In this document: positions 31,234 through 32,620 of the stretch, piece by piece
Layout: each line of letters begins with the position of its first letter
Position numbering within the stretch: position 1 is the stretch's first letter
DNA from: Roseateles saccharophilus
Lineage (GTDB): Bacteria > Pseudomonadota > Gammaproteobacteria > Burkholderiales > Burkholderiaceae_C
Assembly (NCBI RefSeq): GCF_004342485.1
Contig: NZ_SMBU01000004.1
Span: forward strand, 186,001-250,000
Direction of reading: 5' to 3'
DNA: 64,000 nt
Notes under the pieces: model-generated
Database searches by the model: none
Seen by the model: only the letters and a program-made list of their open reading frames with translations
What the model was told of the DNA's origin: nothing
Made by a program: the position numbers and the translations under genes

Positions 31234-32046
31234 ATGAAAGCCGCCTCCCTCCTGCTGCTCGCCTGCGCGGCCGCTCCGCTTGCCCAGGCCCAGCAACAGG
31301 AGCAAGAGCCCGAAAGCCAGCCGGCGCGCTACCTGATCGGCGTCTCGGTCTCGAGCCGGCCCGAGTACGACGGTGCCGCCTCGCGCCAGACCCGGCTCAA
31401 CGCCCTGTGGGCCTTGCAGGTCGGCCGCTGGCGCCTCAGCACCTCGGGCGGCAGCGCGCTGCTCGGCTTCGGCCGGGAAAGCGCCGGCCCGGGCGCCAGC
31501 ACCCAGCTCATCGAGACTGCCAGGCTGCGCCTCGGGCTGGCGCTGCGCGTGGACAACGGGCGCAGCAGCAACGACGCGAGCACGACGCGCGGCCTGCCCG
31601 ACGTGAAGCGCACGCTGCGCGCGCGCCTCTACGCGAACTACAGCCTGGCCCCCGACCTCAACCTCGGCGCCGCGCTGTCCCAGGACCTGCTGGGCCACCA
31701 GGGCGGCCTGAACGCCGATGTGAACCTGGGCTGGCGCTTCTACCGCAGCCCGACGCTGGAGTGGACCAGCGGCATCGGCTTCTCCGCGGCCGACGCGCAG
31801 AACATGCGCAGCTATTTCGGCGTGCCCGAGAGGGCCATGGCGGCGAGCGGCAGGCCGGCCTATGTGCCCGGCTCCGGCCTGCGCGACCTGCATGCCGGCG
31901 TCGGCTTCACGCGGCCCTTCGCCAGGCACTGGTTCGTGTTCGGTTCGGCCGGCGCCAGCCGCCTGCTCGGCCCGGCGGCCGCCAGCCCGCTGGTCGAGAA
32001 GCGCGACGGCAGCTACGCGGCCATCGGCCTGGCCTGGCGAAATTAG
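31234..32046 (+). CDS. MipA/OmpV family outer-membrane protein
   Basis: 270 residues with a signal peptide (cleavage after AQA, about residue 19). The mature part shows alternating beta strands with aromatic ends and closes with GLAWRN, the typical outer-membrane barrel end. Family members include the MltA-interacting scaffold MipA and the OmpV porins; which role applies is not clear. It starts 25 nt after tdh, so it could be co-transcribed, and its stop touches the 254-bp repeat element. Confidence 0.82.
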   Translation: MKAASLLLLACAAAPLAQAQQQEQEPESQPARYLIGVSVSSRPEYDGAASRQTRLNALWALQVGRWRLSTSGGSALLGFGRESAGPGASTQLIETARLRLGLALRVDNGRSSNDASTTRGLPDVKRTLRARLYANYSLAPDLNLGAALSQDLLGHQGGLNADVNLGWRFYRSPTLEWTSGIGFSAADAQNMRSYFGVPERAMAASGRPAYVPGSGLRDLHAGVGFTRPFARHWFVFGSAGASRLLGPAAASPLVEKRDGSYAAIGLAWRN

Positions 32047-32047
32047 C

Positions 32048-32301
32048 CCACTGCGTCGGGGAAATGACACCCCCGCCGGGGCGTGCCGGCAGGCAGACAA
32101 GGCGCGAGGAGGCAGCGGGCTTGCGCCCGCAACGACGAGCAACGCCGCATGCCTGCCGGCACGCCCCGGCCCGCAGGGTGAGGACCAAAGCGGGCCACTC
32201 AGCGTTGCTCGGCATGGCCGGGGCCCAACCCCGGCGGCGTCTCGCGCCTTGATTGGGCCCGCTTTGGTCCTCGCGGGGGTGCCATTTCCCCGACGCAGTG
32301 G
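32048..32301. repeat. Nested inverted-repeat element between two convergent genes
   Basis: The outer arms 32048-32076 and 32273-32301 are inverted repeats matching 28 of 29. Inside, 32075-32095 pairs perfectly with 32150-32170 (21 bp), and 32180-32196 pairs perfectly with 32256-32272 (17 bp). Together they fold as a three-way junction: one closing stem and two long arms. Extra repeats exist: 32098-32108 with 32241-32251 (11 bp), 32137-32145 with 32202-32210 (9 bp), and a small hairpin 32115-32130. The element fills the space between the stop codons of the mipA-like and DUF962 genes exactly. I see no protein, no T-tract and no clear target duplication. Confidence 0.85.
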
Positions 32302-32302
32302 A

Positions 32303-32620
32303 CTAGAACTTGATCCGGCCCCGCCAGATGTCGGCGTACATGAGCCAGTCGCCCATCAGGCTGTAGATCGGGTACTTGAAGGTGGCCGGGCGGTTCTTCT
32401 CGAAGAAGAAATGCCCGACCCACGCAAAGCCGTAGCCGCAGAGCAGGCTGTAGAGCAGCCAGACGAGGGCGCCCGTCGTCACCAGCTCGAACAGGCAGGC
32501 CAGCACCAGCGTCGAGCCGATGAAGTGCAGACGCCGGCAGGTCGTGTTGCTGTGCTCGCCCAGGTAGAAGGGATAGAAATCGGCGAAGCGGGTGTAGCGG
32601 GTGGCGCTCATGCCGGCCAT
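32303..32620 (-). CDS. DUF962 / Mpo1-like membrane protein
   Basis: 105 residues from ATG 32620, or 102 from ATG 32611 (MSATRYTRF), which fits relatives equally well. Motifs: FADFYPFYLGEHSN, CRRLHFIGS, GYGFAWVGHFFFEKNRPATF and the closing DWLMYADIWRG. The histidines of HSN, HFIG and GHFFFEKN match the iron-binding histidines of yeast Mpo1, a dioxygenase that shortens 2-hydroxy fatty acids. Two or three TM helices. A fatty-acid alpha-oxidation role is inference from the family. Confidence 0.85.
   Translation of the reverse strand: MAGMSATRYTRFADFYPFYLGEHSNTTCRRLHFIGSTLVLACLFELVTTGALVWLLYSLLCGYGFAWVGHFFFEKNRPATFKYPIYSLMGDWLMYADIWRGRIKF

What the first reader, a model, noticed from the sequence alone, without database searches (positions are those of the whole stretch)
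32048..32301. A 254-bp nested inverted-repeat element that folds as a three-way junction
Directly visible: outer arms of 29 nt with 28 matches, enclosing two independent perfect inverted repeats of 21 and 17 bp, plus shorter competing repeats (11 and 9 bp). The arms meet almost end to end, so the DNA or RNA can form one closing stem with two long arms. It fills the gap between two convergent stop codons to within 1-2 nt. This is far more structure than a bidirectional terminator needs, and there is no T-tract. It could be a non-autonomous mobile element with 29-bp terminal repeats, a REP/BIME-like array, or a structured RNA. I found no second copy in the window.
Basis: seen in the sequence. 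Interest (0 to 1): 0.75.

Follow-up and report, generated by a model that had tools for sequence, protein, structure and literature searches.

The report
Three-way-junction MITE inserted at CTAG
A 258-bp piece of non-coding DNA that folds like a three-armed cross sits inside the shared stop codon of two genes; it belongs to a widespread family of small passenger mobile elements whose folded core is found between the end sequences of at least two different families of jumping genes.

Summary
The element is 32046-32303 (258 bp) between two TA dinucleotides. A second copy (93%) lies elsewhere in the genome and four full copies in two sister species. Six of 19 compared genomes have the empty site, a CTAG (one TTAG) in which the stops of the convergent mpo1-like and mipA genes overlap; the window has exactly 260 bp more. 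Other inserts sit at this junction in three further lineages. [quoted passage not shown] Its hairpin module (strong covariation, invariant bulge) is found in 20 of 20 genus genomes (3 only by weak matches), 75 of 150 of the family, 46 of 369 of the class and 27 of 398 of the phylum. End sequences fall into several types: one matches an IS5-family insertion sequence, another an IS1182-family one; neither carries the hairpins. No partner for the window's own end type was found. The unexpected part is a conserved folded core shared by elements with different ends; its role was not tested.

The parts
31234..32046 (+). mipA gene; its stop TAG (32044-32046) is the left TA plus the first base of the element
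   Evidence: PF06629 MipA E 4.3e-39; translation ends IGLAWRN*
32044..32045 (.). left copy of the duplicated TA (here within TTAG)
   Evidence: 12-nt gap at empty sites versus 272 nt here: net 260 = 258 + 2 (or 256 + 4 if a whole CTAG is duplicated)
32046..32303 (.). the mobile element (258 bp between the TAs)
32046..32076 (+). left terminal inverted repeat / outer stem, tip type T1
   Evidence: 6 full copies in alignment A3
32075..32170 (+). hairpin A: 21-bp stem 32075-32095/32150-32170
   Evidence: R1 match 84.6 bits
32099..32145 (+). conserved core of hairpin A (AAGGCGCGA...GAGCAACGC, with the bulge AAC)
32171..32179 (+). short linker between the hairpins (CCnnnGG-like in relatives)
   Evidence: seen in sequence; fold
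32180..32272 (-). hairpin B: 17-bp stem 32180-32196/32256-32272, same module in inverted orientation
   Evidence: R1 match 75.4 bits
32202..32250 (-). conserved core of hairpin B
32273..32303 (-). right terminal inverted repeat / outer stem
32304..32305 (.). right copy of the duplicated TA (within CTAG 32303-32306)
32303..32620 (-). mpo1-like (DUF962) gene; its stop is made of the last base of the element plus the TA
   Evidence: PF06127 E 3.8e-40

Best explanation
The 258-bp sequence is a MITE: a non-autonomous element whose near-palindromic ends (about 30 bp) are cut and joined in trans by the transposase of an insertion sequence with the same ends, inserted into the TA of a CTAG-type site with duplication of TA (or of the whole CTAG). 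Because the element's outermost base is G, an insertion of this kind rebuilds a TAG on either side; here it landed in the CTAG on which two convergent stop codons overlapped and kept both stops. Shown: element limits, empty site, several different inserts at one junction, other copies, and IS5- and IS1182-family insertion sequences with the ends of two sister subfamilies (T3 and T2). Inferred: that the same kind of transposase moves the window's subfamily (T1). Also shown: the two inner hairpins are a conserved, covarying module that occurs with more than one end type. Inferred, and least sure: the module is kept because the folded strand (single-stranded DNA during replication, or the 3' ends of transcripts) binds something at its invariant bulge and so helps the element persist or move. 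Also inferred: new sequence in one arm is copied to the other (block changes on both sides), which would let an element change both of its ends together.
For: Empty site in 6 of 19 orthologous loci, with the two stops overlapping on CTAG (5) or TTAG (1); window +260 bp; other inserts at the same junction in G001 (a hairpin remnant, +56 bp, another tip), G007 (T3 element) and G005/G017 (about 168 bp, single-hairpin relative). Copies: 2 in the own genome, 2 in G001, 2 in G002. Insertion sequences with the tips: L263 1106-1932, 827 bp, 18 of 18 matching ends, IS5 family (NF033580, 135.1 bits, cut-off 110); L269 610-2165, 22 of 22 matching ends (CTAG included), 437-aa IS1182 transposase (NF033551, 379.6 bits, cut-off 270), itself between two ORFs that converge on its two CTAGs. 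Exact shared run with the IS5 end 17-18 nt in both ends of L054, L097 and L088 (11 in L188); with the IS1182 end up to 19 nt in L173, 6-14 in the other T2 ends checked, broken by single differences. CTAG 15 observed versus 76 (Markov) or 190 (base composition) expected in the window. Tips preceded by C or T in 63 of 76 genus ends that have a TA. Module: 34 pairs, 90.5% of cells paired, 28 of 34 pairs with changes on both sides, 0 of 500 shuffles reach the covariation score, slid controls 31.0-40.5% paired. Six T1 copies compared pairwise: 77 double Watson-Crick changes, 24 single changes via G-T, 45 that make or break a pair.
Against: In the own genome none of 5 DDE_Tnp_1 loci has T1, T2 or T3 ends as its own ends. 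G007 and G026 carry elements but have no DDE_Tnp_1 match, so a partner must have been lost or be of another kind. Only 23 of 62 genus elements keep a TA at both ends, 30 at one, 9 at none. In G005/G017 the left edge of the insert is CTGA, not CTAG, and the copy in L159 no longer matches the model. The idea that CTAGs are mostly stop codons is not borne out: a rough gene caller makes 1 of the 15 CTAGs of the window a stop, the one at the element. No transposition was observed. No call tests the role of the hairpins.
Confidence: 0.87

Rival explanations
1. A structured RNA or bidirectional 3'-end element kept by selection on the host at gene ends, mobile only by origin.
For: Strong covariation; the unpaired bulge A-A-C is invariant in 40 of 40 modules; on 31 of the 64 flanks where a gene runs towards an element the gene stops exactly at its terminal TAG (read off the listing).
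Against: Sister species do without it at the same junction (6 empty sites). Of 62 elements only 16 lie between two genes inferred to converge; 29 lie between co-oriented and 12 between divergent genes, 5 unresolved (heuristic gene directions). G-T intermediates are fewer than double changes (24 versus 77). No Rfam match at gathering score. No terminator with a good T-tract.
Confidence: 0.3
2. REP/REPIN-type element mobilised by a RAYT (Y1, HUH) transposase acting on the hairpins.
For: Y1 transposase genes in 9 of 9 genomes examined; hairpins with a conserved bulge resemble Y1 substrates (recalled).
Against: The RAYT-type genes of G000 and G001 are flanked by their own 21-22-nt inverted repeat; none of the 18 Y1 loci fetched contains a core hairpin or an element. 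TA/CTAG duplication and TIRs shared with DDE insertion sequences fit a DDE transposase.
Confidence: 0.05
3. A MITE of an IS630/Tc1-mariner transposase (TA target).
For: TA duplication; IS630 is recalled to prefer CTAG; DDE_3 genes present in the own genome and in G001.
Against: DDE_3 genes in only 3 of 9 genomes, none in G515, G002, G006, G007, G026 or G032, which carry the elements; the TA-flanked repeats found around those loci do not match the tips.
Confidence: 0.07
4. Chance palindrome or assembly artefact.
For: None seen.
Against: z -14.2; full copies in three species; defined empty sites.
Confidence: 0.01

Closest known systems
MITEPsy1 of Pseudomonas syringae (PMC3189936; passages read)
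   Same: Short non-autonomous element, 18-nt terminal repeats, inserts at CTAG or YTAA with a 4-nt duplication, attributed to an IS5-family insertion sequence (ISPsy2), shown to transpose in a trap assay.
   Different: 100 nt and a different end sequence; close copies only in part of the P. syringae complex, though the authors note similar sequences in other bacteria; no two-hairpin core is described in the passages read.
IS5-family insertion sequence (NCBIfam NF033580), here L263 1106-1932
   Same: Its 18-nt ends TAGGGCCTGTTAACACTA are the tips of T3 elements.
   Different: Encodes a transposase; no hairpin core found in it.
IS1182-family insertion sequence (NCBIfam NF033551), here L269 610-2165
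   Same: Its ends (CTAGGAGTCTGCGCGGCAGAAC) match the tips of T2 elements over up to 19 nt; its two CTAGs are the ends of two converging ORFs.
   Different: A different transposase family from the T3 partner (both have a DDE_Tnp_1 domain); no core found in it.
Correia/NEMIS, RUP, ERIC and other small TA-target repeats (recalled, not compared here)
   Same: Small, palindromic, TA-flanked intergenic elements.
   Different: By recall each is tied to few genera and one end type; here one core is found with several end types across a phylum.
REP/REPIN with RAYT (start of the abstract of PMC2817692 seen in the listing)
   Same: Extragenic palindromes in many copies.
   Different: The hairpins here do not flank the RAYT-type genes examined.

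Membership tests
MITE | short, no transposase gene | tested here: met
   258 bp, too short for a transposase; the open frames of 80 aa or more that cross it all run on into the neighbours
MITE | terminal inverted repeats | tested here: met
   33-nt arms at 94%
MITE | dispersed copies with different flanks | tested here: met
   6 full T1 copies in 3 species
MITE | target duplication at a defined empty site | tested here: met
   6 empty sites, net +260 bp; 2 bp or 4 bp cannot be told apart
MITE | autonomous element with the same ends | tested here: inconclusive
   found for T2 and T3, not for T1
MITE | observed transposition in trans | not testable with these tools
   needs a trap assay
IS5-derived MITE (window element) | ends match the IS5-family insertion sequence found | tested here: not met
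   the T1 tip differs from the T3 tip of L263
REP/BIME with RAYT | same palindrome flanks the RAYT gene | tested here: not met
Rfam RNA family | match at gathering score | tested here: not met
   none of 7 weak matches around the window element reaches its cut-off; none in 5 relatives
IS630-derived MITE | IS630-type gene with the same ends in the hosts | tested here: not met
   (9 genomes)

The most novel reading that the evidence does not exclude
A phylum-wide parasite of parasites: a conserved two-hairpin nucleic-acid core, with no gene, that persists by wearing the terminal repeats of whichever CTAG-targeting insertion sequence is present (IS5, IS1182 and others), swapping both ends together because each arm of the palindrome is copied from the other, while the invariant bulge of the hairpins binds a still unknown host or transposition factor.
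Probability: 0.3. Interest if true: 0.85.

Novelty: new variant of a known kind. Interest (0 to 1): 0.6.

Why it matters
MITEs are normally read as deletion products of one parent insertion sequence. Here one folded core occurs with the ends of at least two transposase families and recurs across Pseudomonadota, which that picture does not predict. It gives a countable, testable case of end swapping, of arm-to-arm sequence copying in palindromes, and of a mobile element that spares two genes by landing in their shared stop codon. It also accounts for dozens of long hairpins in several of these genomes (up to 88 module matches in one).

Tried and rejected
IS630 as mobiliser: DDE_3 genes in 3 of 9 genomes, ends do not match. 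RAYT as mobiliser: Y1 genes in 9 of 9 genomes but no cores at any of the 18 loci fetched. IS427-type DUF4096 as the general mobiliser: 2 of 9 genomes, yet one of those hits turned out to carry the T3 ends. Known RNA: nothing at gathering score. Autonomous partner by spacing of tips in G515: of 161 exact tips only part were listed; the facing pairs up to 5 kb apart that I read off were 65, about 229, 267 or 294 bp apart, and the one 3-kb pair proved to be two short remnants. Composite element in G009: two elements about 2 kb apart, the ORFs between them looked at by eye only. My idea that elements sit at stops because CTAGs usually are stops: 1 of 15 CTAGs in the window by a rough caller, so dropped. 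Literature: no paper naming the family was seen (listings only; passages of PMC3189936 read). The hit and the 30 listed of 45 papers look unrelated by title; none was opened. Plasmids: the class-level element L095 matches 6 of 72,556 records over 17-50% of its length, the window element none; L095 has no match in phages or E. coli.

Limits of the counts. A2 holds 40 modules: 61 script hits, 44 after filters, 4 more left out by me. Modules had to have a stem of at least 12 of 14 complementary bases, so part of the pairing is selected for; the slid controls and the genome searches do not depend on that filter, but the model was built from these modules. Genome searches scored at most 150, 27, 11 or 10 candidates per genome, so match numbers are lower bounds; E-values of the model are rough. 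Gene directions come from a GC-by-codon-position rule; it got the window's own right flank wrong (called 'away'; the gene runs towards the element), and an earlier rule was dropped as unreliable. One search accepts a TA within a few bases of the repeat end. Core and tip classes are by simple patterns; 18 of 111 elements fell into 'other' tips, several of them misplaced T2 or T3 copies.

Full report
What is there. The finding is real and precise. The outer arms are 28 of 29 matched and reach 33 nt at 94%; inside are a perfect 21-bp and a perfect 17-bp inverted repeat. As RNA the stretch folds at -202.6 kcal/mol, z -14.2, with 0 of 200 shuffles as good. The 11-bp and 9-bp 'competing' repeats are the conserved motifs of the two hairpin loops in opposite orientation.

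Limits and target. The mpo1-like (DUF962) gene was found in 19 of 20 genus genomes, the window's own included. In six (L148-L153) the convergent genes end with overlapping stops on CTAG (TTAG in L153), 12 nt between fixed marks; in the window the same marks are 272 nt apart. The extra 260 bp are 258 bp of element plus a duplicated TA (or 256 plus a duplicated CTAG; the two cannot be told apart). The same junction holds a hairpin remnant (net 56 bp) with another tip in G001, a T3 element in G007 (with a partial earlier tip and a repeated hairpin beside an N), and a 168-bp insert in G005 and G017. The latter is a single-hairpin relative: L156 matches the module model at 39.7 bits, E 1.1e-6, its ortholog L159 no longer does; its right edge is the CTAG, its left edge CTGA. 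Five further genomes (L147, L154, L155, L160, L162) have no CTAG at this place and no insert; L157 has a CTAG that is not shared by both stops and no insert; in L161 and L163 I did not recognise mipA next door (by eye). I chose this site because the window element is there, so its repeated use is not a random sample. CTAG occurs 15 times in the window against 76 (Markov) or 190 (base composition) expected; a rough gene caller makes only one of the 15 a stop codon, the one at the element.

Copies and range. The full T1 element is present twice in the own genome, twice in G001 and twice in G002 (the G001 C8 copy lacks part of one loop). G002 also has three short remnants with different inner junctions, which look like separate deletions inside full elements. 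With a covariance model of the single hairpin (R1) the module is found in 20 of 20 genomes of the genus (17 with a best E of 1.1e-10 or better, G003, G004 and G013 only at 4.7e-5 to 5.4e-4; 45 matches in the own genome, up to 88 elsewhere), 75 of 150 of the family (71 of 141 genera, E <= 1e-7), 46 of 369 of the class (36 of 272 genera, E <= 1e-7) and 27 of 398 of the phylum, 16 of these outside the class and 15 of the 16 in one family (E <= 1e-8). The own genome is counted in each. Match numbers are lower bounds. Beyond the phylum I did not look. It is rare on plasmids (6 of 72,556 records, partial matches, with L095), and L095 has no match in phages or E. coli.

Anatomy of the family. Most elements outlined are about 253-295 bp, with shorter forms of 164-186 bp: TA, an outer stem, hairpin, a short CCnnnGG-like linker, the second hairpin in inverted orientation, outer stem, TA. 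In 40 modules, 34 pairs were tested: 90.5% of cells pair, 28 of 34 pairs have changes on both sides, and no shuffle of 500 reaches the covariation score of 0.671 (mean 0.168); sliding the partners drops pairing to 31.0-40.5%. Eleven alignment columns are invariant; none lies in the 20-bp stem, and six of the eleven are unpaired in the structure, among them the bulged A-A-C. A process that only made the arms alike would have removed that bulge, so the bulge is probably under selection (inference). Between six T1 copies 86-98% identical, double Watson-Crick changes outnumber G-T steps 77 to 24, with 45 changes that make or break a pair (pairwise counts, not independent), and some are three-base blocks changed on both sides. 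That pattern suggests copying from arm to arm on top of selection; this is inference.

Ends and partners. Of 111 outlined elements, 6 have the window's tip (T1), 21 a tip like GGAG(C/T)CTG (T2), 66 GGGCCTGTTAACA-like tips (T3), and 18 others. T3 tips are the ends of an 827-bp IS5-family insertion sequence at a contig end of G006 (L263 1106-1932): 17-18 nt exact in both ends of three of the four T3 elements checked, 11 nt in the fourth. T2 tips resemble the ends of a 1.55-kb IS1182-family insertion sequence in G002 (L269 610-2165), whose two CTAGs are the ends of two converging ORFs: up to 19 nt exact, 6-14 nt before the first difference in the other ends checked. No core was found in either. 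Core types are shared between tip types: type alpha with T1 (5 elements), T2 (8) and T3 (10); beta with T2 (3) and T3 (44); delta with T2 (1) and T3 (31). So core and ends are separable to a degree; both transposases share a DDE_Tnp_1 domain, so the two end types might also have drifted apart with their enzymes. No partner for T1 was found, and two genomes with elements (G007, G026) have no DDE_Tnp_1 match: results against a simple one-parent story.

Where elements land. In 62 genus elements the flanking gene is inferred to run towards the element on 64 flanks; 37 of these genes end in TAG and 31 stop exactly at the TAG of the tip (heuristic gene directions, see limits). Pairs of flanks: 16 convergent, 29 co-oriented, 12 divergent, 5 unresolved. 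Why so many land at or make a TAG stop is not explained: an insertion into the end of a gene would itself create the TAG, and selection against other sites would act too. A TA is present at both ends in 23 of 62, at one in 30, at none in 9; among ends with a TA the base before it is C or T in 63 of 76.

How it most likely works. A DDE transposase supplied by an insertion sequence with the same tip binds the outer repeats, moves the element and joins it at CTAG. This is supported for T2 and T3 by matching ends, and inferred for T1. IS5-type MITEs with CTAG targets are known and shown to move (MITEPsy1, PMC3189936, passages read). The role of the two-hairpin core is open. I favour a structure acting in a single strand, as DNA or RNA, through its bulge; no call tests this. 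A helpful 3'-end hairpin for the flanking genes remains a fair rival.

Novelty. The window element is a MITE, a known kind. What differs is a conserved, covarying core shared by elements with different ends over a whole phylum. I saw no paper describing it in the held library (listings); the library lacks most subscription journals and ISfinder could not be searched, so the family may have a name that I did not meet.

Noticed in passing
L274 (G000:C12, own genome): An IS1634-family insertion sequence (NF033559, 306.6 bits) lies in or next to a T3-type element, seemingly a nested insertion.
   Followed up: partly
L206 1392-1413/2227-2248 (G000:C29); L208: RAYT-type Y1 transposase gene flanked by its own 21-22-nt inverted repeat, much the same in two species.
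   Followed up: partly
L224 75-129 (G000:C11): A 55-bp near-perfect hairpin with CTAG at both ends and the same tip as the remnant at the mpo1-mipA junction of G001.
   Followed up: no
L009, L035 (tips CCTAGATTTGGCAG, CCTAGATCCGGCAG): A further, single-hairpin kind of element with CTAG at its ends; matches the module model at 47.6 and 53.9 bits.
   Followed up: partly
G515 (L105-L124): 161 exact T3-type tips in one 4.5-Mb genome, including short remnants of about 35 bp that end in CTAG.
   Followed up: partly
L053 102-366 and 2402-2668 (G009:C3): Two T3 elements about 2 kb apart; could act as a composite. The ORFs between were only looked at by eye.
   Followed up: partly
L094-L100 versus window 32098-32150: Core loop sequence nearly identical in other families of the class, although the elements are rare on plasmids and L095 has no match in phages: how it spreads is unexplained.
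   Followed up: no
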